From Tubiluchus corallicola (Eukaryota > Priapulida > Priapulimorpha > Priapulimorphida > Tubiluchidae): DNA of 64,000 nt. The notes below the pieces were generated by a model. That model saw only the letters and a list, made by a program, of their open reading frames with translations, did not search any database and had not been told where the DNA came from. The DNA lies in contig JAQGDQ010002407.1 in the NCBI GenBank assembly GCA_030141605.1, positions 7,769 to 71,768 on the forward strand. The letters run 5' to 3'. Positions 2,523-64,000 of this stretch are shown here, piece by piece (the first letter of the stretch is position 1; each line of letters opens with the position of its first letter). Position numbers and translations under genes: made by a program.

Positions 2523-4601
2523 ATGAGAGCAACACATGCACAGCTACTGAGTCTTATGAGTGGGGAGAAACAGTTTACCATACCGGTATACCAGAGGAGG
2601 TACTTCTGGCGAACAGAGCAGCTTCAGCAACTATTTGATGATATTATACATATTGGCAGCAGCAACTCAGAAGCTTCACATTTCATCGGAACCATAACCT
2701 GCTTTAGCCCGGACAGTCTCTCTACATCTGCAACTTCTATCCCTGAGCTATTGGTAATAGACGGGCAACAGCGCCTCCTCACTGTCTCTCTACTTCTTTT
2801 GGCGCTAATACGCTATATAAAACAGAGTAAAGATACTTCTCCGTCCTGTGAGAGCTGGAAGGATATACAAGCATACCTTATTAACAGACACAGGAACGAC
2901 AGCTACAGATATAAGCTCCTTCCAACTGAAAAAGACAGGGAGTCATATATAAAATTGATTGAAAGTGCGAAAACTAACACCCAACACTCTAAGCGGATAT
3001 TCAAAAACTATAGATTTTTTATGGATAATATCCATAAAAAAAATGTTTCCAAACTATATCTGGGCATAAAAAGGCTAACTATAATTAATATAACCCTTGA
3101 CATGGAGAAAGACAATCTCCGTCCTATCTTTGAGGGCCTCAATCCTCCCTTCTCCCAGTCTGACTTGGTTCGAAACTACATATTCATGAAGCATCCACTA
3201 AATGCTCAGCAGGATTTATACGAAAAGTACTGGCAGCCGATGGAGCATAGCTTTGAGGGAAGAGCAGAGCTGCTTACCCGATTTATCAGAGACTACCTGA
3301 CAATGAAACACTCCTCAGTCCCCAAGGAGGGCCTTGTTTATGAAACCTATAAACGATTTTTCAGCATTTGGAGTAGTTTTAGTACAATAGGGGAAGCGCT
3401 CAGGGATCTTTACAAGTACTCTAAGTATTATACCCGGATCGCACTGTTAAAGGAAAAGAATTTAGATATATTGAAAAAACTAAAAGAGATTGCCAAGCTG
3501 AGAATATACTCCTCATACCCATTCCTCCTTGCTGTCTACAATGACTATGAGGAAGGGAAAATTACAAAAAATGAGTTTATCGAAATTATTGATATGCTCT
3601 CCAGCTACCTGTTTAGAAGGGTCATATGCGGCATTTCCTCCAACAGCCTGGGAAAAACTTTCACCACGCTTTATAAACGATCCGGGGGAGGGGTACTCCC
3701 GGAATCTCTCAAAGCGCTGTTTCTGATAATGGAGGGCTACGAAAGGTTCCCTTCTGATGCGGAGTTTATCAGGGAACTGCAAATAAAAGATGTTTACAAT
3801 TTCAGGTTGAGGAATTATCTGTTAGAATCGCTTGAAAATCAAAATAGTAAAGAGTCAATAAGCGTAGAGAACTACACTATAGAGCATATCCTGCCACAAA
3901 ATCCGAATATCTCTCCCCGATGGCAACAAGAGCTTGGAGAAAGCCTGGAAATAGTAAAGGAGAGATATCTTCATACTCTGGGGAACCTTTCGCTTACAAA
4001 CTACAGTTCCGAGTTCTCAGTTAGCTCGTTCGAAGAGAAAAAAACAGTAGAGGGAGGATTCAATGCCAGCCCGCTATATCTTAATCAAACAGTAAAAGAT
4101 GTTCAGGTGTGGAATGAGAAAGCAATCCTGTTGAGAGCCGCCAAACTGAGCAAATCGGCTTGCAGCATATGGAAAAGGCCATACCTTCCACATGACAGAT
4201 TTAATCTCTATAAGAAGCGGGGAAAGGCAAAAAAAGCAGTAGTTTATAGTCCCGGCCATTATGAACATCTGCGGGGGGAGATGCTTGACCTTTATAAAAG
4301 CCTTTCAAAAAGGGTTTTGAACCTCGATGCAGCAGTCAAGATGGAGCTTAAAAAACTATATATCACATTTAAGATCCAAACCAGCTTTGTAGATGTGATC
4401 CCCAAAAGAGAGCGGCTAAGTCTTGCTTTGCATATAGATTTTGATAAGGTAAAGGATCCTAAGGGCATCTGCAGGGATATATCGGAAGCAGGCAATTGGG
4501 GCAACGGCAGTGTTGAGGTGGAACTAGAAGAGCCTGCCGGGCTGGACTATATAATGGAGCTGATTGAGCAGGCACTTGATGAGCAGGTGGAGACAGTGTA
4601 G
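2523..4601 (+). CDS. GmrSD-like modification-dependent restriction protein (DUF262-DUF1524-DUF5655)
   Basis: Probable defence nuclease of the GmrSD (type IV) family, which cleaves modified, typically phage, DNA using NTP hydrolysis in the DUF262 half and an HNH-like nuclease in the DUF1524 half. The DUF262 motifs are clear: PVYQRRYFW at residues 21-29 and IDGQQR at 79-84. The nuclease motif IEHILPQ starts at about residue 453 (Glu454-His455), followed by LGNLSLTN near 490. The last 110 residues (roughly 580-692), with KDPKGICRDISEAGNWGNG, match DUF5655, an accessory domain found at the end of many such proteins. At 692 residues it is a complete single-chain enzyme. It stands alone with no methylase or other defence genes beside it. 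A second copy, cut by the window end, is at 62690-64000. Confidence 0.85.
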   Translation: MRATHAQLLSLMSGEKQFTIPVYQRRYFWRTEQLQQLFDDIIHIGSSNSEASHFIGTITCFSPDSLSTSATSIPELLVIDGQQRLLTVSLLLLALIRYIKQSKDTSPSCESWKDIQAYLINRHRNDSYRYKLLPTEKDRESYIKLIESAKTNTQHSKRIFKNYRFFMDNIHKKNVSKLYLGIKRLTIINITLDMEKDNLRPIFEGLNPPFSQSDLVRNYIFMKHPLNAQQDLYEKYWQPMEHSFEGRAELLTRFIRDYLTMKHSSVPKEGLVYETYKRFFSIWSSFSTIGEALRDLYKYSKYYTRIALLKEKNLDILKKLKEIAKLRIYSSYPFLLAVYNDYEEGKITKNEFIEIIDMLSSYLFRRVICGISSNSLGKTFTTLYKRSGGGVLPESLKALFLIMEGYERFPSDAEFIRELQIKDVYNFRLRNYLLESLENQNSKESISVENYTIEHILPQNPNISPRWQQELGESLEIVKERYLHTLGNLSLTNYSSEFSVSSFEEKKTVEGGFNASPLYLNQTVKDVQVWNEKAILLRAAKLSKSACSIWKRPYLPHDRFNLYKKRGKAKKAVVYSPGHYEHLRGEMLDLYKSLSKRVLNLDAAVKMELKKLYITFKIQTSFVDVIPKRERLSLALHIDFDKVKDPKGICRDISEAGNWGNGSVEVELEEPAGLDYIMELIEQALDEQVETV

Positions 4602-4995
4602 CCCCAAGTAAAGCATTTGTACTACCGGTTCTGTATAAAGCTTATCACCTGTTTGAAACACCTGACAACATCCACTTCAAAAATAAAACTGCCCAAAATT
4701 CGTATTTCATTGCTCAAATTTTGTACCTTGCGCCACATTTTGAAAAAGTTAACGGTAGCAAAGCTGCCTTAAACTAATAGATTGAAGCCTTTGCAAGGTG
4801 AAAGATTTTGGTTCTGGCTGAGAAGCAATTCGGTGAGAATCGCAGTTTACTAATGTTAAGTAAAGACTTTTGAAGAGAGTTTTGGGAAGTATTAGTAAAA
4901 GATGAGTTTTTGCAAAGGCTCCAAAACACAACCCACTACAGCAATACGCCTGCTCACTACAATACAGAAGGGGAAAGCTGTGTAAAAACAATGAT
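4602..4995. other. Intergenic region between the GmrSD-like gene and deaD
   Basis: 394 bp. The first part (4602-4786) is AT-rich with no recognisable feature beyond a TTTTGTACCTTGC stretch near 4719 that weakly resembles a Bacteroidota promoter. The second part is a full copy of the leader repeat (4787-4923) plus its short reading frame, which ends ten bases before deaD. Confidence 0.5.
4787..4923 (+). repeat. Leader repeat upstream of deaD
   Basis: Runs from GCCTTTGCAAGGTGAAAG to TTTTTGCAAAGGCTCC with the family's internal order kept (GGCTGAGAAG, CAGTTTACTAATGTTAAG, GACTTTTGAAG, AAAAGATGAG). It is on the plus strand, like deaD, whereas all other copies in this arm are on the minus strand like their genes. 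The ATG at 4902 opens a 27-codon frame (MSFCKGSK...) that stops at 4983-4985, ten bases before the deaD start. Confidence 0.75.
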
Positions 4996-6675
4996 ATGAT
5001 GAGATTTGATGATATGGGGCTTTATCCCGATATATTAAAAGCCATCCAGGAGATGGGATTTGAACAGCCGTCGGCTATTCAAGAAAAAGTGATTCCCCGA
5101 CTTTTGGAAGAGCCTGCCGACTTGGTGGGGCTAGCACAAACAGGGACAGGAAAAACGGCAGCATTTGGACTGCCTGTACTGCAATCTATTGACCCCCATA
5201 AGAAGGAGGTGCAAGCACTTATCCTCAGCCCGACACGCGAGCTGTGTGTCCAGATTGCAAAAGAGATAAAAAACTTTTCAAAGCATCTTCCAAAAATAGT
5301 CATTACACCTGTCTACGGGGGTGCCGATATTGGGAAGCAGCTCAAAGCGCTGGAGAAAGGTACCCATATAATTACGGCTACTCCCGGACGCATGCACGAC
5401 ATTTTGAGAAGAAAAAAGATTGATCTCTCCGGGATCTCAACACTGGTTCTTGATGAAGCCGATGAAATGCTGAACATGGGGTTTAAGGAGGATGTTGATG
5501 CTATACTTGCTACCACTCCTGAAAGCAAAAATACACTCCTCTTTTCGGCAACAATGCCCAAAGGGGTGTCAGAGATAGCAAAGAGCTACATGAGCAATCC
5601 CATTGAGATCACAGTTGGGAAAAAGAACCACGGAGCAGAAAATGTTAACCACTACTACCATATGGTGCAGGCAAAAGACAGATATGCTGCATTAAAACGT
5701 GTGATGGACTTTACTCCCGATATTTATGGTATAGTGTTTTGCCGTACCAGGATGGATACAAAGAGTATTGCTGCCCAGCTTATAAAAGATGGCTACAGTG
5801 CGGAAGCGTTGCATGGAGACCTTATGCAGCAGCAGCGCGATTATGTGATGGGGAAGTTCCGAGCCAGGGGAGTTAAAATACTTGTTGCTACTGATGTTGC
5901 GGCAAGGGGGATTGATGTAAACGACCTTACTCACGTTATCAATTATAACTTGCCGGAGGATAATGAGAATTATACCCATCGTACCGGTCGTACCGGAAGG
6001 GCTGGAAAGTCAGGAGTGTCGATATCTATTATTCACATGAGGGAGAAGGGAAAAATCAGCCAGATTGAAAGGGCACTGGGCAAAAAGATTGAGAGGCTAC
6101 CCGTTCCAGGGGGGAAAGAGATATGTAAGAAGCAGCTCCTACACCTTATCGACAGACTACAAAAAGTTGAAGTAAATAGGGAGCAGATAGCTCCATTTAT
6201 GCAGGTGGTGTTTGACAAGCTGGAAAAGTTGTCCCGAGAGGAGTTGATAACACATTTTGTCTCATTGGAGTTTAACCGCTTTCTGCATTACTATCAGGAT
6301 GCACCTGACCTGAATGCTGTTGATACTAGTGGCCGGAAAGCAAGGGGCAGCGACAGGGCAAAAGGCAGTGATGCAAATATGACATCTTTAAGGCTAAACA
6401 TTGGAATGGCAAAGGGGATTAAGCCCAAAGATATAATATCACTTGTAGTGCAGGCTACAGGTAACAAGAGCGTTGATGTAGGGCGCATTGAGCTTAGGGG
6501 GAGGCACTCTATCGTAAGTATTGAATCCGGACAGGCAGATGCGTTCCGGAAGAACTGTAAGAATTTTACATTTAACGGCATCCCTATCGCCGCAGATATA
6601 ATCACTAAGGCAAATAAGTTTAAAAGGAAGCCGGGGCAGCAAAGAAAAGGTGGCAGAAACAGGAGAGCAAGGTAG
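4996..6675 (+). CDS. deaD: DEAD-box ATP-dependent RNA helicase with DbpA-type RNA-binding domain
   Basis: Unwinds structured RNA, probably in ribosome assembly, mRNA decay or cold adaptation. All family motifs are present: Q motif near 22-28 (FEQPSAIQ), Walker A AQTGTGKT 47-54, PTREL 79-83, TPGR 129-132, DEAD 153-156, SAT 184-186, ATDVAARGID 298-307 and HRTGRTGR 328-335. A DbpA-type RNA-binding domain covers about 462-535 and a basic tail (KRKPGQQRKGGRNRRAR) closes the protein, which is the normal architecture for the 550-600 residue DeaD/CsdA group. The start has two adjacent ATGs (4996, 4999). The gene converges on the LysM gene with 65 bases between stops. Its leader contains the dispersed repeat, so expression may be controlled through that element. 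Confidence 0.93.
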   Translation: MMRFDDMGLYPDILKAIQEMGFEQPSAIQEKVIPRLLEEPADLVGLAQTGTGKTAAFGLPVLQSIDPHKKEVQALILSPTRELCVQIAKEIKNFSKHLPKIVITPVYGGADIGKQLKALEKGTHIITATPGRMHDILRRKKIDLSGISTLVLDEADEMLNMGFKEDVDAILATTPESKNTLLFSATMPKGVSEIAKSYMSNPIEITVGKKNHGAENVNHYYHMVQAKDRYAALKRVMDFTPDIYGIVFCRTRMDTKSIAAQLIKDGYSAEALHGDLMQQQRDYVMGKFRARGVKILVATDVAARGIDVNDLTHVINYNLPEDNENYTHRTGRTGRAGKSGVSISIIHMREKGKISQIERALGKKIERLPVPGGKEICKKQLLHLIDRLQKVEVNREQIAPFMQVVFDKLEKLSREELITHFVSLEFNRFLHYYQDAPDLNAVDTSGRKARGSDRAKGSDANMTSLRLNIGMAKGIKPKDIISLVVQATGNKSVDVGRIELRGRHSIVSIESGQADAFRKNCKNFTFNGIPIAADIITKANKFKRKPGQQRKGGRNRRAR

Positions 6676-6720
6676 TAAGGAGCTCGTTTTGTTACAAATG
6701 GTTTTTTTACAATGTCTACC

Positions 6721-6764
6721 AAAAAAAGCTTTCCCCTTTCTCAAAAAAAAGCTTTCCCCCTTTC
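6721..6764. repeat. 22-bp tandem duplication at the end of the LysM gene
   Basis: Two near-identical units (6721-6742 and 6743-6764), each an A-run followed by GCTTTCCCC and a TTTCT tail. The duplication covers the stop codon of the LysM gene (its C-terminal GKAFF) and repeats those codons just after the stop. It looks like a slippage duplication. Confidence 0.7.
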
Positions 6765-9098
6765 TTTGTACGGTGCCTGATGCTTAATAAAAGGCTGATT
6801 CCCCATTTCTCCCTTCAGCTCTACTTCAAAGTCTTTTGAGTACTCCATTATTAAGAGCGAGTAGTTCATATATCCTCCGTATTCGGACATCTTCTGGAAG
6901 TTATAGTCCGCCTGAAGCATATCGAAGCTGTAAAATGGTAAGCAGTCGATAAAATCCTTCCCCGACCTGCCTATAGCATTAAGGAAATACCATACAACAT
7001 CGTAGCCCTGAAAGCTGAATGGGGTTGGCTCCGTATAAAACTCCCTTCTGTAGTCTCTGATAAACCTGTTTACATTTCTTTTAGTGTAGTCAATCCGGTA
7101 TGGTGTGAGGTAGTTCATTTTAAGGTTATGGAGATGTTCTGTATCGATACTTTCAAACCTGCTAAATTCCAAAAATCCTATCAGGGTTATACTAAATTTC
7201 TTAGAGGCAGTATTTATATTATTTATAGCTTTACTCACTTCGGCTTCATTGCTTATAGGAAGTATAACTATATTTTCTTTGCGCGGACTCATCAGTCGCT
7301 CCAGTGCGTAATACCCTTCTTCATCAAAGTTGAACTCATGAAAAAGTATTTCGTTTGTATTGTTGTAGTACCCCGTTGTAAATAGCTTCTCACGTATCCT
7401 ATCAACAACCATTTTCTCATCAAGGTGCTGGGTGTTGTCAAACCCCATTACAATAATGTTTTGGTTGAAAAAATCTTCTACTATGTAATCACTTGTCGCC
7501 TTCAGCTTGTACTCCTTCCACGGATTAACTTGAAAGTAGTAGGGGTTCTTTTTTGCTAAAGAACTATTTTCCGACAACGGGGATACCATAGGTATATGCT
7601 TTTTGGCAGCAATCTCAGATACCGGTTTCTGGCATTTAATATATACCGGACCTATGATAAGGTCAAGTTCAAGAACTTCAGGTTTTTTCACCAACTGTTC
7701 AACGACTTTGGGATCACTCTCTGTATCATATACAAATAGTTCAACACTCATACCCCTATTTTGCAAGTCATAGATTGCCAAAAGTGCCCCTTCATAAAAG
7801 TGAAGGAAGTTTACTGTCCGTGGGTGTATGGTTTTGTAAGCTTTTATATTTTCCCGGACAGCTGTCTCTTCGCTCGTATTTCCACTTATTGAGTCATTAT
7901 TGTTCAGGCATAAAGGCAGGAACAGTCCCACTTTCACCAGGTTGCCCATAAACTGCCGAGAGCTGAGACATTGGGGGGGAACACTCTTCAGTTTTTCTCC
8001 TGTGCTGCTCTCCACTTTTTCAATATACTCTGACCTGGATGAGAAGTATCCATTTCTTGGGAGCAATAGTTTTTCTCCTGCAATAAGCCCTCTGCCCTTT
8101 AACCCAGGGTTTAGCTCTTTGATCTGGCTTATTTTTAGACCATACAGCAGAGAAAGGCTATATAGTGTTTCTCCTTTTGTAACTACATGGTATGAAAACC
8201 TGTTTTTATCTATCGGGATAATGTGATTAACAGCTATCTGCTTTTTGGGAATGTTTATAATTAGTCCTGCTTTCAACCCGTCATTCAACTGAGGGTTTAG
8301 TTCTGTTAACTCCTTTTGCTCCACCCCATATCTTCTTTTTAGTCCAAAATAGGTGTCTCCTGAAACGACACGATATGAAAAGTATTTTGCACTATTCGGC
8401 AACTCCTGCATGTCTACTCCTGGGGATTTTTCTTCGAGAGCCTCTTTTACACTCTCCTTTTCTGTTGTCTCTTTGGGTATTTTTATCACTGTCCCGGTAG
8501 ATAGCACCATTTCAATTCCCGGGTTGGCCTGAGATAGTAGGCTTATGCTGCAGTTATATTTTTTCGATATTGAGTACAGTGTTTCTCCTTTAGCCACAGT
8601 GTGGAGAGTAAAGTTGTCTTTGCCTGCCTGTCGGGCAGGTGGAATTTTCAGAACAACACCCTGTTTAATTTTTTTTCTGGAGCTCGGGTTAAGCCTGTAA
8701 ATATCTTCTGTGTCAACATCGTATATTTTGGAAATGGAATATACCGTCTCTCTCCTTTTTACCTTGTGGGTTCTCAGGGGGGGCTCTTGCTGCTGATCAT
8801 GGACTGAGGGCTCCTGCTGCTGTTCTGCTACCGGGATTTTTAATATTTGCTCCGTGTTCAGGCTGTTTTGCTTAAGGTGATTTGCCTCTTTTACACTATT
8901 TATATCTACTTTATACGCTTTTGATATTGAGTAGAGTGTCTCCCCTTTTTTGACTGTATGAAGCAGGTAGTCCTTCCCCCGAATAACAACAATTTCAGAT
9001 GATACTTTCACCTGTGCTAAAGCTATTACAGGCAGGAGCATGCAAAGCAGGAAAGTAGATAAGAAAAGGCTTCTGTTTATTTTAATGCCTGAGATCAT
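6741..9098 (-). CDS. Exported LysM-repeat protein with periplasmic-binding-protein-like domain (785 aa)
   Basis: Probably a periplasmic, peptidoglycan-associated ligand-binding protein; ligand unknown. The signal peptide is residues 1-28 (hydrophobic run ending VIALA-Q). Five LysM modules follow at about 44-89, 109-153, 163-208, 240-284 and 301-347, most with the HxVxKGETLYSISK signature. From about 395 (VKVGLFLPL) to the end the protein resembles type-1 periplasmic binding proteins (Leu/Ile/Val-receptor fold). The LysM1-LysM2 linker is a Gln/Glu/Pro tandem repeat with unit QQQEPSVHD; this copy is one unit shorter than the 793-residue copy in the other arm. The gene starts 27 bases after the DHOD-like stop, so it is probably the last gene of the nfnB run. 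Confidence 0.85.
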   Translation of the reverse strand: MISGIKINRSLFLSTFLLCMLLPVIALAQVKVSSEIVVIRGKDYLLHTVKKGETLYSISKAYKVDINSVKEANHLKQNSLNTEQILKIPVAEQQQEPSVHDQQQEPPLRTHKVKRRETVYSISKIYDVDTEDIYRLNPSSRKKIKQGVVLKIPPARQAGKDNFTLHTVAKGETLYSISKKYNCSISLLSQANPGIEMVLSTGTVIKIPKETTEKESVKEALEEKSPGVDMQELPNSAKYFSYRVVSGDTYFGLKRRYGVEQKELTELNPQLNDGLKAGLIINIPKKQIAVNHIIPIDKNRFSYHVVTKGETLYSLSLLYGLKISQIKELNPGLKGRGLIAGEKLLLPRNGYFSSRSEYIEKVESSTGEKLKSVPPQCLSSRQFMGNLVKVGLFLPLCLNNNDSISGNTSEETAVRENIKAYKTIHPRTVNFLHFYEGALLAIYDLQNRGMSVELFVYDTESDPKVVEQLVKKPEVLELDLIIGPVYIKCQKPVSEIAAKKHIPMVSPLSENSSLAKKNPYYFQVNPWKEYKLKATSDYIVEDFFNQNIIVMGFDNTQHLDEKMVVDRIREKLFTTGYYNNTNEILFHEFNFDEEGYYALERLMSPRKENIVILPISNEAEVSKAINNINTASKKFSITLIGFLEFSRFESIDTEHLHNLKMNYLTPYRIDYTKRNVNRFIRDYRREFYTEPTPFSFQGYDVVWYFLNAIGRSGKDFIDCLPFYSFDMLQADYNFQKMSEYGGYMNYSLLIMEYSKDFEVELKGEMGNQPFIKHQAPYKERGKAFF

Positions 9099-9125
9099 AT
9101 AGTGTGTATCCGGTTTTCTAACATT

Positions 9126-10133
9126 TCATTCCTGGCTACTACCCGGAAATTTATCACTGCCAAAATGGCGCATATACTGTACGCGCTCATAGTCAGATGG
9201 GTTCGCGCTATTTTCAAGGCTAAGTTTTCCCCTGAAGCTTTTAATATCTGAGTAGTGATGATTTTTCATCCATAAAGCAAGCTGTTGAATCATTTTTGAG
9301 ATTACAGGAATCCCGTGAATGTACATTGCTGAGACTACCTGGACAGCAGTTGCTCCCGCCAGCAGCATTTTTACTACTGTCTCCCAATTGTGTATACCTG
9401 TCGAGCTGATAAGGTCGCAATTGATTCGGTTAGACATCATACCAACCCACCTTAGAGGGAGTATGTACTCATCAGGGTGGCTAAAAGGGTTTGAAGTTAT
9501 TAGCGACTCCTTTTTGATGTCTATGTCCGGAGAGTAAAACCTGTTAAACAGCACCAATCCTTTTGCCTCAGTAAAAGATATTTCTTTAATCATTTTTCCC
9601 AGGCTTGATAAGTGTGGGCTTATTTTTACAGAGACGGGTATTTTAGCATTCAATGCAACTCCCGATATTATATCGAAATAGGTTTTTTCATTTTCTTCTC
9701 CAGATTGTGATATGTTAGAGGGAAGAATGAATATATTTAGTTCAATGGCATCGGCTCCCGCCTCCTCTATTTTTTGTGCAAAAAATGGCCACTCCTGGGA
9801 ACTGAGGCAGTTAATGCTTGCAATTATTGGAATATTGATCTCTTTTTTGGCATTTTTAATAAGGGTAAGGTATCTGGCGAGATTGTTTTCACGTATTTTG
9901 TAGTCGTAGTAATCGAGAAATTCAAGATTATTACTCATAGGGCCGAGTTTACTGAACTCTTCAGCATATTCGGCATATATCTCCTCTTCAAATATCGATT
10001 TTAAGACAATAGCTCCTGCTCCTGCCTTTTCAATTTTCCTGAGATTATCTATTGAGTTTGTAAGGCCACAGCTTCCCGCAATAAGTGGATTACGCATCTC
10101 AATTCCAAGATATGATACTGACAGGTTTGACAT
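9126..10133 (-). CDS. Dihydroorotate dehydrogenase-like flavoprotein
   Basis: FMN-dependent TIM-barrel oxidoreductase of the DHOD/PreA family. The N-terminus MSNLSVSYLGIEMRNPLIAG and the phosphate-binding end (SSTGIHNWETVVKMLLAGA, then AVQVVSAMY) are typical. A DHOD in pyrimidine synthesis is possible, but this family is usually annotated only as DHOD-like and its substrate is unknown. The frame extends to a TTG at 10154; I start at the ATG at 10133, which aligns with the family start. It lies directly after nfnB and before the LysM gene, so it is co-transcribed with an NADPH/ferredoxin enzyme that could supply or take its electrons (inference). Confidence 0.8.
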   Translation of the reverse strand: MSNLSVSYLGIEMRNPLIAGSCGLTNSIDNLRKIEKAGAGAIVLKSIFEEEIYAEYAEEFSKLGPMSNNLEFLDYYDYKIRENNLARYLTLIKNAKKEINIPIIASINCLSSQEWPFFAQKIEEAGADAIELNIFILPSNISQSGEENEKTYFDIISGVALNAKIPVSVKISPHLSSLGKMIKEISFTEAKGLVLFNRFYSPDIDIKKESLITSNPFSHPDEYILPLRWVGMMSNRINCDLISSTGIHNWETVVKMLLAGATAVQVVSAMYIHGIPVISKMIQQLALWMKNHHYSDIKSFRGKLSLENSANPSDYERVQYMRHFGSDKFPGSSQE

Positions 10134-10155
10134 ATTCAAGTATGTTTTGTTCAAA

Positions 10156-11637: not shown

Positions 11638-11654
11638 CTATTAATATTTTATTT

Positions 11655-11685
11655 TAGCCCTTTGCAAAGAGTTCATTTTATTATA
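11655..11685 (-). repeat. Truncated leader repeat upstream of nfnB
   Basis: Only the 3' end of the element is kept: an A-rich stretch, ATGAACTCTTTGCAAAGG, then the nfnB leader. The ATG (11674-11676) opens a frame MNSLQRAKIKY that stops three bases before the nfnB ATG. Confidence 0.55.
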
Positions 11686-11814
11686 AAGGAGCAATTATTT
11701 ATGGGTTAGTTAACCTTTTTATCAGAAAGCCAAAGTACGAAAAACAGGTAATGCCTGAAAATTAAAAAGGAAATTTCGCTTTTTGTATGTGATATATCAT
11801 ACTGTTTAGCCAAG

Positions 11815-12645: not shown

Positions 12646-12676
12646 ATAATCGGTGATAAGTAATTTAAGTCCATAC

Positions 12677-48710: not shown

Positions 48711-48730
48711 AAAATCAAAAAACAAGGAAA

Positions 48731-53730: not shown

Positions 53731-53946
53731 TAATAAAAATACTCTCAAACTTTTGAATCAAACACTAGCTTATTCCTCTATAGCTTCTCCCTTTTTTAGG
53801 AGCAGAATGGACCCAAATTTAGCCTGCTACTCATTAGCGTGAGAGCAAGGACTTTCCGTTGGAATATAAAAAACTGCATGCGGTATAAAAGTGGGGATTT
53901 TTACCTATATTGCCACCCTAATATTTTGTACAAAAGGTAAATAATT

Positions 53947-54372: not shown

Positions 54373-54460
54373 ACATGGTGCCATAATGTACCTGGGCTTT
54401 TTTCAGCTCAGAGAAAAAGTCTTCCTTGAATTGATACCGCCACGCAGGTGAAAAGAGTAA

Positions 54461-54590
54461 GACCTTTGCAAAGTGAAAGTATTTTACTCCAGATTGAGGG
54501 AAGCTCAGTGAAAACCTAGGATATACAGGAGGCTTTAAAAGGAACTTTGACGAAAACATTAATATAAACATAGGCTTTGCATAGGCCTCA
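54461..54590 (+). repeat. Leader repeat upstream of nfnA (right arm)
   Basis: Ends CTTTGCATAGGCCTC; a TTG inside this end (54577) would open an extended nfnA frame, and another short frame (54593-54625) ends in an ATGA overlap with nfnA. Confidence 0.7.
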
Positions 54591-54621
54591 GTATGGACTT
54601 AAATTACTTATCACCGATTAT

Positions 54622-55452: not shown

Positions 55453-55581
55453 CTTGGCTAAACAGTATGATATATCACATACAAAAAGCGAAATTTCCTT
55501 TTTAATTTTCAGGCATTACCTGTTTTTCGTACTTTGGCTTTCTGATAAAAAGGTTAACTAACCCATAAATAATTGCTCCTT

Positions 55582-55612
55582 TATAATAAAATGAACTCTT
55601 TGCAAAGGGCTA
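55582..55612 (+). repeat. Truncated leader repeat upstream of nfnB (right arm)
   Basis: Only the ATGAACTCTTTGCAAAGG end; its 11-codon frame (55591-55626) stops three bases before the nfnB ATG. Confidence 0.55.
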
Positions 55613-55629
55613 AAATAAAATATTAATAG

Positions 55630-57111
55630 ATGCTAGTAACCCCTGAATATCTGAAAAAAGAGAGAGATGCAGAATGGCGCGCTGAATTGCGGAAAAGCAT
55701 CAAAAATAAAGAACGCACACTCATCGACAGAGTGCTAATGCCCGAGCTTGAGCCTATGACAAGGGCTAAGTCACAAAATAAAGAGGTGAATACAGGGCTG
55801 TCTGTAGAACAAGCGGTAAAAGAAGCTGTCAGGTGCTTGGATTGTGCAAATCCCACATGCATCGGGGGATGCCCTGTGGGCATAAATATTCCAAAATTTA
55901 TTAAGAACATTGAAAGGCAAGAATTTGGGGAAGCAATTGCCACACTGAAAGAGACCAATGCCTTACCCGCTGTCTGTGGGAGGGTGTGTCCCCAAGAGAA
56001 ACAATGTGAAGCTGAATGCTTTTATTTTACAAAACTAGACAAAGAGCCGGTTGCAATTGGATACCTGGAGAGATTTGCAGCTGACTATGAGCGCGAATCC
56101 GGGAAGATGGCTGTCCCTGAAGCGGTTCCAAGAAACGGTGTAAAAGTGGCAGCAGTGGGTTCGGGCCCGGCATCCCTCTCATTTGCAGGCGAAATGATAA
56201 AACGGGGCTTTGACGTAACAGTATTTGAGGCGCTTCACGAAATAGGAGGGGTCTTAAAATACGGGATCCCCGAATTCAGGCTGCCCAACACAATTGTGGA
56301 TACTGAGCTGGACATTCTGAAAAAAATGGGCGTTAAATTTGAAACAAACTTTATTGTTGGGAGGACAGCGTCATTTGACAAACTCCGGGAGGAAGGATTT
56401 AAAGCTTTTTTTATAGGCAGTGGGGCAGGGCTCCCACGCTTTATGAACATCCCAGGCGAAAATAGCAATGGCGTACTATCTGCCAACGAATACCTTACGC
56501 GCGTAAACCTTATGGGAGCTGATGATGACACAAACGATACTCCTGTATTGTATGGGAAAAATGTAGCTATAATAGGAGGCGGAAATACCGCAATTGACTC
56601 AGTGCGTACTGCAAAAAGGCTTGGAGCCAAAAGAGCTGCAATAATATACAGGCGCTCAGAGCGGGAGATGCCTGCCCGTATAGAAGAAATAAAACATGCT
56701 AAAGAGGAGGGGATAGAATTTTATACACTATGTAATCCCGTTAAATATAAAGCTGATGAAAACGGAAGGGTAAAAGGGATAGAGCTTATACGTATGGAGC
56801 TTGGCAAACCGGATGACTCTGGCAGAAGACGCCCTATTGCGGTAGAGGGGTCTGAATTTGAATTTGAAGCAGACATTGTTATTATCGCTGTCGGCGTATC
56901 TCCAAATCCGTTAGTGCCAGAATGCCTTCCATCTTTAAAAACATCCAGCTGGGGAACAATAGTCGTTGATGAAAATAAAATGCAATCATCCGAAAAAGAT
57001 ATGTTTGCAGGAGGCGATATTGTAAGAGGCGGAGCAACTGTAATACTTGCTATGGGAGATGGAAGAAAAGCAGCTGAAAACATGCATAATTATCTGAAAG
57101 AAAAAAAATAG
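55630..57111 (+). CDS. nfnB: NfnB-like subunit (right arm)
   Basis: Identical second copy of the 493-residue GltD-type subunit with two 4-Cys groups. The DHOD-like frame begins one base after its stop if TTG is used, or 22 bases after with the preferred ATG. Confidence 0.85.
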   Translation: MLVTPEYLKKERDAEWRAELRKSIKNKERTLIDRVLMPELEPMTRAKSQNKEVNTGLSVEQAVKEAVRCLDCANPTCIGGCPVGINIPKFIKNIERQEFGEAIATLKETNALPAVCGRVCPQEKQCEAECFYFTKLDKEPVAIGYLERFAADYERESGKMAVPEAVPRNGVKVAAVGSGPASLSFAGEMIKRGFDVTVFEALHEIGGVLKYGIPEFRLPNTIVDTELDILKKMGVKFETNFIVGRTASFDKLREEGFKAFFIGSGAGLPRFMNIPGENSNGVLSANEYLTRVNLMGADDDTNDTPVLYGKNVAIIGGGNTAIDSVRTAKRLGAKRAAIIYRRSEREMPARIEEIKHAKEEGIEFYTLCNPVKYKADENGRVKGIELIRMELGKPDDSGRRRPIAVEGSEFEFEADIVIIAVGVSPNPLVPECLPSLKTSSWGTIVVDENKMQSSEKDMFAGGDIVRGGATVILAMGDGRKAAENMHNYLKEKK

Positions 57112-57133
57112 TTTGAACAAAACATACTTGAAT

Positions 57134-58141
57134 ATGTCAAACCTGTCAGTATCATATCTTGGAATTGAGATGCGTAATCCACTTATTGCGGGAAGCTGTG
57201 GCCTTACAAACTCAATAGATAATCTCAGGAAAATTGAAAAGGCAGGAGCAGGAGCTATTGTCTTAAAATCGATATTTGAAGAGGAGATATATGCCGAATA
57301 TGCTGAAGAGTTCAGTAAACTCGGCCCTATGAGTAATAATCTTGAATTTCTCGATTACTACGACTACAAAATACGTGAAAACAATCTCGCCAGATACCTT
57401 ACCCTTATTAAAAATGCCAAAAAAGAGATCAATATTCCAATAATTGCAAGCATTAACTGCCTCAGTTCCCAGGAGTGGCCATTTTTTGCACAAAAAATAG
57501 AGGAGGCGGGAGCCGATGCCATTGAACTAAATATATTCATTCTTCCCTCTAACATATCACAATCTGGAGAAGAAAATGAAAAAACCTATTTCGATATAAT
57601 ATCGGGAGTTGCATTGAATGCTAAAATACCCGTCTCTGTAAAAATAAGCCCACACTTATCAAGCCTGGGAAAAATGATTAAAGAAATATCTTTTACTGAG
57701 GCAAAAGGATTGGTGCTGTTTAACAGGTTTTACTCTCCGGACATAGACATCAAAAAGGAGTCGCTAATAACTTCAAACCCTTTTAGCCACCCTGATGAGT
57801 ACATACTCCCTCTAAGGTGGGTTGGTATGATGTCTAACCGAATCAATTGCGACCTTATCAGCTCGACAGGTATACACAATTGGGAGACAGTAGTAAAAAT
57901 GCTGCTGGCGGGAGCAACTGCTGTCCAGGTAGTCTCAGCAATGTACATTCACGGGATTCCTGTAATCTCAAAAATGATTCAACAGCTTGCTTTATGGATG
58001 AAAAATCATCACTACTCAGATATTAAAAGCTTCAGGGGAAAACTTAGCCTTGAAAATAGCGCGAACCCATCTGACTATGAGCGCGTACAGTATATGCGCC
58101 ATTTTGGCAGTGATAAATTTCCGGGTAGTAGCCAGGAATGA
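57134..58141 (+). CDS. Dihydroorotate dehydrogenase-like flavoprotein (right arm)
   Basis: Identical second copy of the FMN barrel protein. ATG at 57134 (MSNLSVSYLG) is preferred over the TTG at 57113. LysM gene follows after 27 bases. Confidence 0.8.
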   Translation: MSNLSVSYLGIEMRNPLIAGSCGLTNSIDNLRKIEKAGAGAIVLKSIFEEEIYAEYAEEFSKLGPMSNNLEFLDYYDYKIRENNLARYLTLIKNAKKEINIPIIASINCLSSQEWPFFAQKIEEAGADAIELNIFILPSNISQSGEENEKTYFDIISGVALNAKIPVSVKISPHLSSLGKMIKEISFTEAKGLVLFNRFYSPDIDIKKESLITSNPFSHPDEYILPLRWVGMMSNRINCDLISSTGIHNWETVVKMLLAGATAVQVVSAMYIHGIPVISKMIQQLALWMKNHHYSDIKSFRGKLSLENSANPSDYERVQYMRHFGSDKFPGSSQE

Positions 58142-58168
58142 AATGTTAGAAAACCGGATACACACTAT

Positions 58169-60550
58169 ATGATCTCAGGCATTAAAATAAACAGAAGCCT
58201 TTTCTTATCTACTTTCCTGCTTTGCATGCTCCTGCCTGTAATAGCTTTAGCACAGGTGAAAGTATCATCTGAAATTGTTGTTATTCGGGGGAAGGACTAC
58301 CTGCTTCATACAGTCAAAAAAGGGGAGACACTCTACTCAATATCAAAAGCGTATAAAGTAGATATAAATAGTGTAAAAGAGGCAAATCACCTTAAGCAAA
58401 ACAGCCTGAACACGGAGCAAATATTAAAAATCCCGGTAGCAGAACAGCAGCAGGAGCCCTCAGTCCATGATCAGCAGCAAGAGCCCCCTGTCCATGAGCA
58501 GCAAGAGCCCCCCCTGAGAACCCACAAGGTAAAAAGGAGAGAGACGGTATATTCCATTTCCAAAATATACGATGTTGACACAGAAGATATTTACAGGCTT
58601 AACCCGAGCTCCAGAAAAAAAATTAAACAGGGTGTTGTTCTGAAAATTCCACCTGCCCGACAGGCAGGCAAAGACAACTTTACTCTCCACACTGTGGCTA
58701 AAGGAGAAACACTGTACTCAATATCGAAAAAATATAACTGCAGCATAAGCCTACTATCTCAGGCCAACCCGGGAATTGAAATGGTGCTATCTACCGGGAC
58801 AGTGATAAAAATACCCAAAGAGACAACAGAAAAGGAGAGTGTAAAAGAGGCTCTCGAAGAAAAATCCCCAGGAGTAGACATGCAGGAGTTGCCGAATAGT
58901 GCAAAATACTTTTCATATCGTGTCGTTTCAGGAGACACCTATTTTGGACTAAAAAGAAGATATGGGGTGGAGCAAAAGGAGTTAACAGAACTAAACCCTC
59001 AGTTGAATGACGGGTTGAAAGCAGGACTAATTATAAACATTCCCAAAAAGCAGATAGCTGTTAATCACATTATCCCGATAGATAAAAACAGGTTTTCATA
59101 CCATGTAGTTACAAAAGGAGAAACACTATATAGCCTTTCTCTGCTGTATGGTCTAAAAATAAGCCAGATCAAAGAGCTAAACCCTGGGTTAAAGGGCAGA
59201 GGGCTTATTGCAGGAGAAAAACTATTGCTCCCAAGAAATGGATACTTCTCATCCAGGTCAGAGTATATTGAAAAAGTGGAGAGCAGCACAGGAGAAAAAC
59301 TGAAGAGTGTTCCCCCCCAATGTCTCAGCTCTCGGCAGTTTATGGGCAACCTGGTGAAAGTGGGACTGTTCCTGCCTTTATGCCTGAACAATAATGACTC
59401 AATAAGTGGAAATACGAGCGAAGAGACAGCTGTCCGGGAAAATATAAAAGCTTACAAAACCATACACCCACGGACAGTAAACTTCCTTCACTTTTATGAA
59501 GGGGCACTTTTGGCAATCTATGACTTGCAAAATAGGGGTATGAGTGTTGAACTATTTGTATATGATACAGAGAGTGATCCCAAAGTCGTTGAACAGTTGG
59601 TGAAAAAACCTGAAGTTCTTGAACTTGACCTTATCATAGGTCCGGTATATATTAAATGCCAGAAACCGGTATCTGAGATTGCTGCCAAAAAGCATATACC
59701 TATGGTATCCCCGTTGTCGGAAAATAGTTCTTTAGCAAAAAAGAACCCCTACTACTTTCAAGTTAATCCGTGGAAGGAGTACAAGCTGAAGGCGACAAGT
59801 GATTACATAGTAGAAGATTTTTTCAACCAAAACATTATTGTAATGGGGTTTGACAACACCCAGCACCTTGATGAGAAAATGGTTGTTGATAGGATACGTG
59901 AGAAGCTATTTACAACGGGGTACTACAACAATACAAACGAAATACTTTTTCATGAGTTCAACTTTGATGAAGAAGGGTATTACGCACTGGAGCGACTGAT
60001 GAGTCCGCGCAAAGAAAATATAGTTATACTTCCTATAAGCAATGAAGCCGAAGTGAGTAAAGCTATAAATAATATAAATACTGCCTCTAAGAAATTTAGT
60101 ATAACCCTGATAGGATTTTTGGAATTTAGCAGGTTTGAAAGTATCGATACAGAACATCTCCATAACCTTAAAATGAACTACCTCACACCATACCGGATTG
60201 ACTACACTAAAAGAAATGTAAACAGGTTTATCAGAGACTACAGAAGGGAGTTTTATACGGAGCCAACCCCATTCAGCTTTCAGGGCTACGATGTTGTATG
60301 GTATTTCCTTAATGCTATAGGCAGGTCGGGGAAGGATTTTATCGACTGCTTACCATTTTACAGCTTCGATATGCTTCAGGCGGACTATAACTTCCAGAAG
60401 ATGTCCGAATACGGAGGATATATGAACTACTCGCTCTTAATAATGGAGTACTCAAAAGACTTTGAAGTAGAGCTGAAGGGAGAAATGGGGAATCAGCCTT
60501 TTATTAAGCATCAGGCACCGTACAAAGAAAGGGGGAAAGCTTTTTTTTGA
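58169..60550 (+). CDS. Exported LysM-repeat protein, long allele (793 aa, right arm)
   Basis: Same protein as at 6741-9098 except for eight extra residues (PVHEQQEP) in the Gln/Glu/Pro linker between LysM1 and LysM2. In DNA terms the copies differ by one 24-bp unit between two CAGCAAGAGCCCCC repeats at 58475 and 58499. This is the only difference seen between the arms. It converges on deaD. Confidence 0.85.
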   Translation: MISGIKINRSLFLSTFLLCMLLPVIALAQVKVSSEIVVIRGKDYLLHTVKKGETLYSISKAYKVDINSVKEANHLKQNSLNTEQILKIPVAEQQQEPSVHDQQQEPPVHEQQEPPLRTHKVKRRETVYSISKIYDVDTEDIYRLNPSSRKKIKQGVVLKIPPARQAGKDNFTLHTVAKGETLYSISKKYNCSISLLSQANPGIEMVLSTGTVIKIPKETTEKESVKEALEEKSPGVDMQELPNSAKYFSYRVVSGDTYFGLKRRYGVEQKELTELNPQLNDGLKAGLIINIPKKQIAVNHIIPIDKNRFSYHVVTKGETLYSLSLLYGLKISQIKELNPGLKGRGLIAGEKLLLPRNGYFSSRSEYIEKVESSTGEKLKSVPPQCLSSRQFMGNLVKVGLFLPLCLNNNDSISGNTSEETAVRENIKAYKTIHPRTVNFLHFYEGALLAIYDLQNRGMSVELFVYDTESDPKVVEQLVKKPEVLELDLIIGPVYIKCQKPVSEIAAKKHIPMVSPLSENSSLAKKNPYYFQVNPWKEYKLKATSDYIVEDFFNQNIIVMGFDNTQHLDEKMVVDRIREKLFTTGYYNNTNEILFHEFNFDEEGYYALERLMSPRKENIVILPISNEAEVSKAINNINTASKKFSITLIGFLEFSRFESIDTEHLHNLKMNYLTPYRIDYTKRNVNRFIRDYRREFYTEPTPFSFQGYDVVWYFLNAIGRSGKDFIDCLPFYSFDMLQADYNFQKMSEYGGYMNYSLLIMEYSKDFEVELKGEMGNQPFIKHQAPYKERGKAFF

Positions 60551-60615
60551 GAAAGGGGAAAGCTTTTTTTGGTAGACATTGTAAAAAAACCATTTGTAAC
60601 AAAACGAGCTCCTTA

Positions 60616-62295
60616 CTACCTTGCTCTCCTGTTTCTGCCACCTTTTCTTTGCTGCCCCGGCTTCCTTTTAAACTTATTTGCCTTAGTGATTATATCTGCG
60701 GCGATAGGGATGCCGTTAAATGTAAAATTCTTACAGTTCTTCCGGAACGCATCTGCCTGTCCGGATTCAATACTTACGATAGAGTGCCTCCCCCTAAGCT
60801 CAATGCGCCCTACATCAACGCTCTTGTTACCTGTAGCCTGCACTACAAGTGATATTATATCTTTGGGCTTAATCCCCTTTGCCATTCCAATGTTTAGCCT
60901 TAAAGATGTCATATTTGCATCACTGCCTTTTGCCCTGTCGCTGCCCCTTGCTTTCCGGCCACTAGTATCAACAGCATTCAGGTCAGGTGCATCCTGATAG
61001 TAATGCAGAAAGCGGTTAAACTCCAATGAGACAAAATGTGTTATCAACTCCTCTCGGGACAACTTTTCCAGCTTGTCAAACACCACCTGCATAAATGGAG
61101 CTATCTGCTCCCTATTTACTTCAACTTTTTGTAGTCTGTCGATAAGGTGTAGGAGCTGCTTCTTACATATCTCTTTCCCCCCTGGAACGGGTAGCCTCTC
61201 AATCTTTTTGCCCAGTGCCCTTTCAATCTGGCTGATTTTTCCCTTCTCCCTCATGTGAATAATAGATATCGACACTCCTGACTTTCCAGCCCTTCCGGTA
61301 CGACCGGTACGATGGGTATAATTCTCATTATCCTCCGGCAAGTTATAATTGATAACGTGAGTAAGGTCGTTTACATCAATCCCCCTTGCCGCAACATCAG
61401 TAGCAACAAGTATTTTAACTCCCCTGGCTCGGAACTTCCCCATCACATAATCGCGCTGCTGCTGCATAAGGTCTCCATGCAACGCTTCCGCACTGTAGCC
61501 ATCTTTTATAAGCTGGGCAGCAATACTCTTTGTATCCATCCTGGTACGGCAAAACACTATACCATAAATATCGGGAGTAAAGTCCATCACACGTTTTAAT
61601 GCAGCATATCTGTCTTTTGCCTGCACCATATGGTAGTAGTGGTTAACATTTTCTGCTCCGTGGTTCTTTTTCCCAACTGTGATCTCAATGGGATTGCTCA
61701 TGTAGCTCTTTGCTATCTCTGACACCCCTTTGGGCATTGTTGCCGAAAAGAGGAGTGTATTTTTGCTTTCAGGAGTGGTAGCAAGTATAGCATCAACATC
61801 CTCCTTAAACCCCATGTTCAGCATTTCATCGGCTTCATCAAGAACCAGTGTTGAGATCCCGGAGAGATCAATCTTTTTTCTTCTCAAAATGTCGTGCATG
61901 CGTCCGGGAGTAGCCGTAATTATATGGGTACCTTTCTCCAGCGCTTTGAGCTGCTTCCCAATATCGGCACCCCCGTAGACAGGTGTAATGACTATTTTTG
62001 GAAGATGCTTTGAAAAGTTTTTTATCTCTTTTGCAATCTGGACACACAGCTCGCGTGTCGGGCTGAGGATAAGTGCTTGCACCTCCTTCTTATGGGGGTC
62101 AATAGATTGCAGTACAGGCAGTCCAAATGCTGCCGTTTTTCCTGTCCCTGTTTGTGCTAGCCCCACCAAGTCGGCAGGCTCTTCCAAAAGTCGGGGAATC
62201 ACTTTTTCTTGAATAGCCGACGGCTGTTCAAATCCCATCTCCTGGATGGCTTTTAATATATCGGGATAAAGCCCCATATCATCAAATCTCATCAT
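60616..62295 (-). CDS. deaD: DEAD-box RNA helicase (right arm)
   Basis: Identical second copy of the 559-residue helicase with DbpA-type RNA-binding domain. Its leader repeat again follows its own orientation. Confidence 0.93.
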   Translation of the reverse strand: MMRFDDMGLYPDILKAIQEMGFEQPSAIQEKVIPRLLEEPADLVGLAQTGTGKTAAFGLPVLQSIDPHKKEVQALILSPTRELCVQIAKEIKNFSKHLPKIVITPVYGGADIGKQLKALEKGTHIITATPGRMHDILRRKKIDLSGISTLVLDEADEMLNMGFKEDVDAILATTPESKNTLLFSATMPKGVSEIAKSYMSNPIEITVGKKNHGAENVNHYYHMVQAKDRYAALKRVMDFTPDIYGIVFCRTRMDTKSIAAQLIKDGYSAEALHGDLMQQQRDYVMGKFRARGVKILVATDVAARGIDVNDLTHVINYNLPEDNENYTHRTGRTGRAGKSGVSISIIHMREKGKISQIERALGKKIERLPVPGGKEICKKQLLHLIDRLQKVEVNREQIAPFMQVVFDKLEKLSREELITHFVSLEFNRFLHYYQDAPDLNAVDTSGRKARGSDRAKGSDANMTSLRLNIGMAKGIKPKDIISLVVQATGNKSVDVGRIELRGRHSIVSIESGQADAFRKNCKNFTFNGIPIAADIITKANKFKRKPGQQRKGGRNRRAR

Positions 62296-62689
62296 ATCAT
62301 TGTTTTTACACAGCTTTCCCCTTCTGTATTGTAGTGAGCAGGCGTATTGCTGTAGTGGGTTGTGTTTTGGAGCCTTTGCAAAAACTCATCTTTTACTAAT
62401 ACTTCCCAAAACTCTCTTCAAAAGTCTTTACTTAACATTAGTAAACTGCGATTCTCACCGAATTGCTTCTCAGCCAGAACCAAAATCTTTCACCTTGCAA
62501 AGGCTTCAATCTATTAGTTTAAGGCAGCTTTGCTACCGTTAACTTTTTCAAAATGTGGCGCAAGGTACAAAATTTGAGCAATGAAATACGAATTTTGGGC
62601 AGTTTTATTTTTGAAGTGGATGTTGTCAGGTGTTTCAAACAGGTGATAAGCTTTATACAGAACCGGTAGTACAAATGCTTTACTTGGGG
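62296..62689. other. Intergenic region deaD / GmrSD-like gene (right arm)
   Basis: 394 bp with the deaD leader repeat (62368-62504) and 185 AT-rich bases without other recognisable features. Confidence 0.5.
62368..62504 (-). repeat. Leader repeat upstream of deaD (right arm)
   Basis: Minus strand, in deaD orientation; the 27-codon frame from its ATG (62387-62389) ends ten bases before deaD. Confidence 0.75.
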
Positions 62690-64000
62690 CTACACTGTCT
62701 CCACCTGCTCATCAAGTGCCTGCTCAATCAGCTCCATTATATAGTCCAGCCCGGCAGGCTCTTCTAGTTCCACCTCAACACTGCCGTTGCCCCAATTGCC
62801 TGCTTCCGATATATCCCTGCAGATGCCCTTAGGATCCTTTACCTTATCAAAATCTATATGCAAAGCAAGACTTAGCCGCTCTCTTTTGGGGATCACATCT
62901 ACAAAGCTGGTTTGGATCTTAAATGTGATATATAGTTTTTTAAGCTCCATCTTGACTGCTGCATCGAGGTTCAAAACCCTTTTTGAAAGGCTTTTATAAA
63001 GGTCAAGCATCTCCCCCCGCAGATGTTCATAATGGCCGGGACTATAAACTACTGCTTTTTTTGCCTTTCCCCGCTTCTTATAGAGATTAAATCTGTCATG
63101 TGGAAGGTATGGCCTTTTCCATATGCTGCAAGCCGATTTGCTCAGTTTGGCGGCTCTCAACAGGATTGCTTTCTCATTCCACACCTGAACATCTTTTACT
63201 GTTTGATTAAGATATAGCGGGCTGGCATTGAATCCTCCCTCTACTGTTTTTTTCTCTTCGAACGAGCTAACTGAGAACTCGGAACTGTAGTTTGTAAGCG
63301 AAAGGTTCCCCAGAGTATGAAGATATCTCTCCTTTACTATTTCCAGGCTTTCTCCAAGCTCTTGTTGCCATCGGGGAGAGATATTCGGATTTTGTGGCAG
63401 GATATGCTCTATAGTGTAGTTCTCTACGCTTATTGACTCTTTACTATTTTGATTTTCAAGCGATTCTAACAGATAATTCCTCAACCTGAAATTGTAAACA
63501 TCTTTTATTTGCAGTTCCCTGATAAACTCCGCATCAGAAGGGAACCTTTCGTAGCCCTCCATTATCAGAAACAGCGCTTTGAGAGATTCCGGGAGTACCC
63601 CTCCCCCGGATCGTTTATAAAGCGTGGTGAAAGTTTTTCCCAGGCTGTTGGAGGAAATGCCGCATATGACCCTTCTAAACAGGTAGCTGGAGAGCATATC
63701 AATAATTTCGATAAACTCATTTTTTGTAATTTTCCCTTCCTCATAGTCATTGTAGACAGCAAGGAGGAATGGGTATGAGGAGTATATTCTCAGCTTGGCA
63801 ATCTCTTTTAGTTTTTTCAATATATCTAAATTCTTTTCCTTTAACAGTGCGATCCGGGTATAATACTTAGAGTACTTGTAAAGATCCCTGAGCGCTTCCC
63901 CTATTGTACTAAAACTACTCCAAATGCTGAAAAATCGTTTATAGGTTTCATAAACAAGGCCCTCCTTGGGGACTGAGGAGTGTTTCATTGTCAGGTAGTC
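62690..64000 (-). CDS. GmrSD-like restriction protein, second copy cut by window end
   Basis: Encodes residues 257-692 of the protein at 2523-4601: the end of the DUF262 region, the DUF1524 nuclease site (IEHILPQ) and the DUF5655 tail. The 5' part is outside the window, so whether this copy is intact cannot be seen. The reading frame is still open at the last base. Confidence 0.85.
   Translation of the reverse strand, partial: DYLTMKHSSVPKEGLVYETYKRFFSIWSSFSTIGEALRDLYKYSKYYTRIALLKEKNLDILKKLKEIAKLRIYSSYPFLLAVYNDYEEGKITKNEFIEIIDMLSSYLFRRVICGISSNSLGKTFTTLYKRSGGGVLPESLKALFLIMEGYERFPSDAEFIRELQIKDVYNFRLRNYLLESLENQNSKESISVENYTIEHILPQNPNISPRWQQELGESLEIVKERYLHTLGNLSLTNYSSEFSVSSFEEKKTVEGGFNASPLYLNQTVKDVQVWNEKAILLRAAKLSKSACSIWKRPYLPHDRFNLYKKRGKAKKAVVYSPGHYEHLRGEMLDLYKSLSKRVLNLDAAVKMELKKLYITFKIQTSFVDVIPKRERLSLALHIDFDKVKDPKGICRDISEAGNWGNGSVEVELEEPAGLDYIMELIEQALDEQVETV

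What the first reader, a model, noticed from the sequence alone, without database searches (positions are those of the whole stretch)
3291..64000. Giant near-perfect palindrome: two arms of at least 29.4 kb around a 1.93-kb spacer
The genes from the GmrSD-like gene to the GLUG gene occur twice in mirror order, with identical products except one. Arms that long and that identical, carrying single-copy housekeeping genes (tyrA, icd, deaD, nfnAB), are very unusual in a bacterial chromosome. It is either a recent large inverted duplication (amplification intermediate, linear or dimeric palindromic replicon) or a chimera from DNA amplification or assembly. A perfect palindrome would be prone to SbcCD-type cleavage in vivo, but a 1.9-kb spacer makes it tolerable.
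Basis: seen in the sequence. Interest (0 to 1): 0.9.

Follow-up and report, generated by a model that had tools for sequence, protein, structure and literature searches.

The report
Fold-back chimera in bacterial contaminant contig
A huge mirror-image DNA contig that looked like a doubled piece of bacterial chromosome is most likely a copying or assembly artefact: the normal, unfolded continuation of the same chromosome sits on another contig of the same assembly.

Summary
The palindrome is in the sequence and is larger than reported. The window lies on a 75,058-bp bacterial contig, C1, of a 343.5-Mb, 2,344-contig assembly. All readable sequence of C1 (67,290 bp; its first 7,768 positions read N) is one end-to-end palindrome: arms of 32,668 and 32,692 bp, no mismatch, one 24-bp indel, 1,930-bp spacer. 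Window 1-3290 is therefore arm, not a unique flank.

The two inner junctions differ. The left one lies inside an intact GLUG gene. The right one cuts a GLUG copy and a PEGA-domain gene. Contig C1247 (426 kb) matches the spacer over 978 columns (no mismatch, one gap), runs through the right breakpoint and carries the PEGA gene as a 795-aa frame. So the right junction is secondary. It sits on a 10-bp inverted repeat 1.93 kb apart, as published for inverted chimeras of DNA amplification.

I judge it a fold-back chimera made in vitro or during assembly (0.85). A real rearrangement in the bacterium, with the Lactobacillus bulgaricus terminus repeats as precedent, is not excluded (about 0.12). No reads were available.

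The parts
1..32668 (+). left arm (native orientation); the finding's start 3291 is only where the window's own mirror ends
   Evidence: 32,668 bp mirror C1:42367-75058 with 0 mismatches and one 24-bp indel
34599..64000 (-). right arm, as far as the window goes; continues 3,290 bp to the end of contig C1 (L004)
32669..34598 (.). unique spacer, 1,930 bp: start of the GLUG gene and the 3' part of the PEGA gene
   Evidence: window 33633-34609 is also found at C1247:4-981
31957..33585 (-). intact GLUG-motif gene (542 aa) that crosses the left junction 32668/32669, which marks this junction as native
   Evidence: PF07581, 4e-25
34606..35310 (+). mirror copy of the GLUG gene, cut at its start by the right junction (234-aa ORF left)
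33628..34659 (-). PEGA-domain gene cut by the right junction; the homologous part begins at about residue 26 and aligns to residue 247 of a 589-aa homologue. A 795-aa frame of the gene is on C1247
34599..34609 (.). right (secondary) junction: spacer ...TTTTTAGC joined to arm ATAGCCTTGT TTGG; the 10-bp ATAGCCTTGT at 34600-34609 is shared by native C1247 and arm
32658..32667 (+). ACAAGGCTAT, inverted partner of ATAGCCTTGT, where the 3' end would have annealed
58489..58512 (.). 24 bases (8 codons in frame) present in the right arm and absent at 8778 in the left arm, inside a short tandem repeat of the LysM gene
2523..4601 (+). GmrSD-type gene (with DUF5655), near the outer end of the left arm
25330..28807 (-). 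icd, aroG-chorismate mutase and tyrA: ordinary chromosomal genes, one copy in each arm
   Evidence: tyrA lies directly before aroG in 63 of 65 related loci

Best explanation
The contig is a fold-back (inverted) chimera of one ordinary stretch of a Bacteroidota chromosome. Native order, inferred from the overlap of C1 and C1247: left arm - GLUG gene - PEGA gene - rest of C1247. A 3' end that stopped in the PEGA gene, at ATAGCCTTGT, annealed to ACAAGGCTAT 1.93 kb upstream, on a displaced strand of the same branched molecule or on its own strand, and was extended back along the left arm. The product reads arm - spacer - reversed arm. Either a whole molecule of this kind was sequenced, or (I think likelier) one or a few junction-crossing reads gave the assembler a false edge, and it then walked back along the reads of the single real arm until that arm's assembly ended. 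Both versions explain near-identical arms and a readable contig that is symmetrical to its last base. Shown: the geometry, the native continuation, the cut genes, the junction homology. Inferred: that it happened outside the cell, and by which polymerase.
For: Arms identical but for one 24-bp stretch, and all 67,290 readable bases of the contig are one palindrome. C1247 overlaps the spacer over 978 columns with no mismatch and one gap, continues past the breakpoint in another sequence and holds the PEGA gene as a 795-aa frame. The left junction lies in an intact gene, the right one breaks two genes. A 10-bp exact inverted repeat lies at the breakpoint: an exact match of 10 or more bases touching a random pair of points arose in 9e-5 of 200,000 random draws, while inverted 10-mers with a loop up to 5 kb are common in the native sequence (123 in 20 kb), so no special site is needed. 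This fits published amplification chimeras: 406 of 475 inverted, 337 of the 406 with segments under 10 kb apart, over 70% of junctions at 2-21 nt of complementarity (PMC1855051, passages); distances 0-5 kb, overlap peak 6 nt (PMC4595205, passages). The 1-kb arm piece searched has 2 places in the assembly, both on C1; for window 1-3000 the best-scoring match outside C1 is 92% over half of it (40 of 65 candidates scored).
Against: Palindromes are not widespread here: of 21 contigs with a HisKA match only C1 has an equal-scoring inverted twin pair on itself (one locus per contig as a rule), and in C1247 (first 80 of 426 kb), C1353 (20.0 of 20.6 kb) and C1851 (whole) the longest inverted self-match is 83 columns. 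A heavily amplified library should show more. The 24-bp in-frame difference means the arms are not a mere copy of one graph node; it needs separate consensus calling, a strain variant, or a real event after duplication. The product lacks one A next to the 10-bp stretch, which simple extension of the annealed native end would keep. The paper on amplification chimeras excludes hairpin self-priming as a major route and favours annealing to displaced strands. I do not know how the assembly was sequenced or whether its DNA was amplified.
Confidence: 0.85

Rival explanations
1. A real fold-back rearrangement in the bacterium: a broken or stalled 3' end primed on the short inverted repeat and copied the arm back, giving a large chromosomal inverted repeat or a tandem-inversion duplication carried by part of the population.
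For: Real precedent with similar geometry: L. delbrueckii ssp. bulgaricus terminus repeats of 38-76 kb, spacers of 1-8.8 kb, a 16-bp imperfect inverted repeat at the border, explained by fold-back synthesis followed by deletion (PMC5345009, abstract, section 8 and first part of section 9). Junction homology here is of the same kind. The 24-bp in-frame difference could be a change after duplication. Palindromes are not widespread in the other contigs sampled.
Against: Only that one subspecies had such repeats; none of 1373 other chromosomes did. A fixed repeat arm-spacer-arm leaves no place for C1247, which needs its own spacer copy. A tandem-inversion duplication needs a third arm copy and a second junction (recalled definition); no further copy of the 1-kb arm piece searched and no full-identity match to the outer end were found, though an assembler could have collapsed them. 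Near-identical arms and a readable contig symmetrical to the last base need extra coincidence.
Confidence: 0.12
2. A palindromic or hairpin-ended extrachromosomal replicon, or an inverted dimer of one.
For: The readable contig is palindromic from end to end.
Against: The arms hold ordinary chromosomal genes and no replication, partition or telomere-resolution gene among the 20 ORFs scanned with Pfam (2 of the 20 had no match, small ORFs and the open frame at 2-1813 were not scanned). The spacer continues into a 426-kb contig. Both ends of the readable sequence lie in an open reading frame (and the mirror). Window 20001-40000 has no match in 72,556 plasmid records (near mode only).
Confidence: 0.02
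3. A missed-adapter or template-plus-complement sequencing artefact without polymerase fold-back.
For: Foldback reads are 0.55-0.6% of nanopore genomic reads in one survey (PMC12870357, passages); missed adapters also give palindromic PacBio reads (PMC6218980, passages).
Against: Such reads turn at the molecule's end; the survey counts them only if the two parts map within 200 bp. Here 1.93 kb of unique spacer and a homology-marked junction separate the arms.
Confidence: 0.01

Closest known systems
Inverted chimeras of multiple displacement amplification and similar strand-displacement copying (Lasken and Stockwell 2007, PMC1855051; Pacasus, PMC6218980; PMC13265396; passages of each)
   Same: Inverted joining of two segments under 10 kb apart, junction on a short complementary stretch, the stretch between the join points left as single-copy spacer, arms nearly identical.
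   Different: Here in an assembled 67-kb palindrome rather than a read; the amplification history of the assembly is unknown; palindromes are not widespread in the other contigs tested.
Large inverted repeats at the replication terminus of Lactobacillus delbrueckii ssp. bulgaricus (PMC5345009)
   Same: Arms of tens of kb, spacer of 1-8.8 kb, short imperfect inverted repeat at the border, fold-back synthesis as part of the proposed origin.
   Different: Those are in 5 chromosomes, with arms eroded by deletions and two dif sites; here the arms are nearly identical, the unfolded form is present in the same assembly, and no terminus feature was looked for.
Tandem-inversion duplication in Salmonella (Kugelberg et al. 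[quoted passage not shown]
   Same: Inverted extra copies; joining at short inverted repeats (recalled).
   Different: These give three copies and two junctions (triplication; the rest recalled); here two copies and one junction were found.

Membership tests
Fold-back (inverted) amplification or assembly chimera | second segment inverted, join points under 10 kb apart | tested here: met
   inverted, spacer 1,930 bp
Fold-back (inverted) amplification or assembly chimera | junction at 2-21 nt of complementarity between the 3' end and the new template | tested here: met
   10 nt exact, one extra A on the native side
Fold-back (inverted) amplification or assembly chimera | unrearranged sequence across the breakpoint exists in the same sample | tested here: met
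   C1247
Fold-back (inverted) amplification or assembly chimera | arms without independent divergence | tested here: inconclusive
   0 mismatches in 32.7 kb but one 24-bp in-frame difference
Fold-back (inverted) amplification or assembly chimera | other palindromes in the same assembly, expected if the whole library was amplified (not defining for a single chimera) | tested here: inconclusive
   none seen: 0 of 20 other HisKA contigs show an equal-scoring inverted twin; longest inverted self-match in three other contigs 83 columns. An isolated chimera remains possible
Fold-back (inverted) amplification or assembly chimera | few reads across the junction; sample amplified before sequencing | not testable with these tools
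   no reads and no assembly metadata
Stable chromosomal inverted repeat (L. bulgaricus type) | both arms flanked by different unique chromosome sequence | tested here: inconclusive
   readable contig ends at the mirror point and no other scored contig matches window 1-3000 at full identity, but C1:1-7768 reads N, so one flank cannot be read
Stable chromosomal inverted repeat (L. bulgaricus type) | location at the replication terminus (dif) | not tested
   no dif search was made
Tandem-inversion duplication | three copies and two junctions | tested here: inconclusive
   one 1-kb arm piece gives 2 places, both on C1; one fold-back junction seen. Collapsed copies cannot be excluded without depth
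Palindromic or hairpin linear replicon | replication or telomere-resolution genes | tested here: not met
   none in the 20 ORFs scanned; small ORFs, the open frame at 2-1813 and C1:1-7768 not examined

The most novel reading that the evidence does not exclude
A Bacteroidota bacterium living with the sequenced host carries, in part of its population, a true 67-kb fold-back inverted duplication with a 1.93-kb spacer, made in vivo at a 10-bp inverted repeat: a second natural case of the very large inverted repeats that one survey (PMC5345009) found only in L. bulgaricus, caught together with its unrearranged parent.
Probability: 0.12. Interest if true: 0.6.

Novelty: not a real feature. Interest (0 to 1): 0.12.

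Why it matters
As an artefact it matters for curation: about 33 kb of bacterial genes are counted twice, and the contig is bacterial although it is filed in a eukaryote-sized assembly. It also shows how to tell the native from the false junction without reads: find the intact genes and the contig that overlaps the spacer. [quoted passage not shown]

Tried and rejected
Species-level relatives for an independent check: the genome-contig scan gave 65 loci, best full-length match 72% identity (Prolixibacteraceae and kin). With the window they share tyrA directly before aroG (63 of 65) and one weak hit each of two other genes among 20 proteins tried, too distant to test the junction. Protein searches with the PEGA and OmpA-family proteins gave 2 and 5 remote hits (in the second only 8000 candidates were scored), so no close relative was found by them; the third search was not used. 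Plasmid collection: no match. Rfam and tRNA scans of the window: none. A widespread palindrome problem in the assembly: not supported by the contigs sampled. Searches of the own genome with PF07517, PF18935, PF00691 and PF00593 did not complete. Kugelberg et al. 2010 could not be read.
Full report
What is there. Self-comparison of the window gives one inverted match: 34599-64000 mirrors 32668-3291 over 29,402 columns with no mismatch and one gap of 24 bases. The window is positions 7769-71768 of contig C1 of an assembly of 343,548,820 bases in 2,344 contigs, the size of a eukaryote's genome. C1 is 75,058 bp; its first 7,768 positions read N. The remaining 3,290 bp after the window mirror window 1-3290, so all 67,290 readable bases of C1 form one palindrome: left arm 32,668 bp, spacer 1,930 bp, right arm 32,692 bp. 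The finding's coordinates 3291 and 64000 are set by the window, and 1-3290 is not a unique flank. N runs at the very start are also present in 3 of 20 other contigs sampled (C3, C1597, C1299). I cannot say whether they come from the assembly or are withheld; the coincidence of the N border with the mirror of the contig's end is recorded, not explained.

Whose DNA. The closest full-length AroG-chorismate mutase in the genome collection is 72% identical, from Prolixibacteraceae and related Bacteroidota. tyrA lies directly before aroG in 63 of 65 of those loci, otherwise there is almost no shared order. So this is a symbiont or contaminant contig of a Bacteroidota bacterium for which I found no close relative.

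Which junction is native. The GLUG gene (31957-33585, minus) runs intact through the left junction. At the right junction the mirrored GLUG copy lacks its start (34606-35310, plus), and the PEGA gene in the spacer is cut: its homologous part starts at about residue 26 of the ORF and aligns to residue 247 of a 589-aa homologue. A search of the assembly with the spacer found contig C1247. It is 426,209 bp long and starts inside the spacer: C1247:4-981 equals window 33633-34609 with no mismatch and one gap, and then continues differently. C1247 carries the PEGA gene as a 795-aa frame that runs to the contig's edge and contains a 98% identical internal duplication, followed by further bacterial ORFs (two of them look to me like the subunits of a 2-oxoacid:ferredoxin oxidoreductase, by eye only). 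Thus the natural order is left arm - GLUG - PEGA - C1247, and the right junction is a secondary fold-back.

The junction itself. Aligned on ATAGCCTTGT, the three sequences read: native C1247 TTTTTAGCA-ATAGCCTTGT-GTGTTCC; product TTTTTAGC-ATAGCCTTGT-TTGGATA; left arm reversed GGATAAC-ATAGCCTTGT-TTGGATA. Ten bases are shared exactly. The product lacks one A of the native sequence, which could be a homopolymer error or a repaired bulge. An exact match of 10 or more bases touching a random pair of points occurred in 9e-5 of 200,000 draws, so homology at the join is not chance. But inverted 10-mers with loops up to 5 kb are frequent in the native sequence (123 in 20 kb), so nothing special is needed about this site.

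Mechanism. A 3' end in the PEGA gene annealed back to ACAAGGCTAT (32658-32667) and was extended along the arm. Inverted chimeras in strand-displacement amplification look like this: 406 of 475 chimeras inverted, 337 of these within 10 kb, over 70% of junctions at 2-21 complementary nucleotides (PMC1855051, abstract and passages); distances of 0-5 kb and overlaps peaking at 6 nt (PMC4595205, passages). The first paper favours annealing to displaced strands of the same branched molecule and excludes hairpin self-priming as a major route; the sequence here cannot tell these apart. Palindromes made up 44-48% of amplified Arabidopsis PacBio reads and 12% of amplified gorilla reads, against 0.5% in an unamplified control (PMC6218980, passages). 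Either the whole molecule was sequenced or, more economically, a false edge led the assembler back along the reads of one real arm. The second version explains why both ends of the readable contig stop at the same base. The arm's outer end lies in a gene whose relative on C1299 holds several copies of one part of it at 86-92% identity, a plausible place for an assembly to break.

What speaks against the artefact. Of 21 contigs with a HisKA match, C1 alone shows an equal-scoring inverted pair on itself, and in the stretches of three other contigs that I read the longest inverted self-match is 83 columns, so the assembly does not seem full of palindromes. The arms differ by 24 bp, in frame, inside a short tandem repeat (785 against 793 aa), so they were not simply copied as one consensus. 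And real precedents exist: terminus inverted repeats of 38-76 kb in all 5 L. bulgaricus chromosomes studied, with 1-8.8-kb spacers and a 16-bp imperfect inverted repeat at the border, yet in none of 1373 other chromosomes (PMC5345009, abstract, section 8 and the first part of section 9).

Weighing. A fixed inverted repeat cannot easily hold C1247 as well, since C1247 needs its own copy of the spacer. A tandem-inversion duplication would need a third arm and a second junction; neither was found, although collapse by the assembler cannot be excluded without read depth. I put the fold-back chimera at 0.85, a real rearrangement at 0.12, the rest at 0.03. Read mapping would settle it.

Noticed in passing
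C1:1-7768 (L003): The first 7,768 positions of the contig read N, and the border of this run coincides to the base with the mirror of the contig's last base. 3 of 20 other sampled contigs also begin with N.
   Followed up: partly
L070 (C1247) 464-1756: The PEGA gene on C1247 holds a 645-bp tandem internal duplication, 98.45% identical.
   Followed up: partly
window 1956-2006 and its mirror: A dispersed element of about 50 bp, AT-rich on one side, matches 94-98% at many places on many other contigs (C1299, C1700, C1719, C31 and others), but not in the first 80 kb of C1247 or in C1353 and C1851. It may mark contigs of the same or related bacteria.
   Followed up: partly
window 2-1813; C1299:118662-120975: The open gene at the arm's outer end, with repeated 'YTVTA.DGS'-like units, has a 92% identical relative on C1299, where window 275-580 matches several times in a row.
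   Followed up: no
C1851:1-5884 (L100) and C1719, C1851, C1853: C1851 begins with a 2.94-kb direct duplication at 99.86% identity, and HisKA matches with the same score lie on C1719, C1851 and C1853, which suggests redundant assembly of bacterial contigs.
   Followed up: no
window 58445-58512 and 8778: The LysM protein's linker has a variable number of short Q/E/P/V/H-rich units; the two arms differ by 8 residues there.
   Followed up: partly
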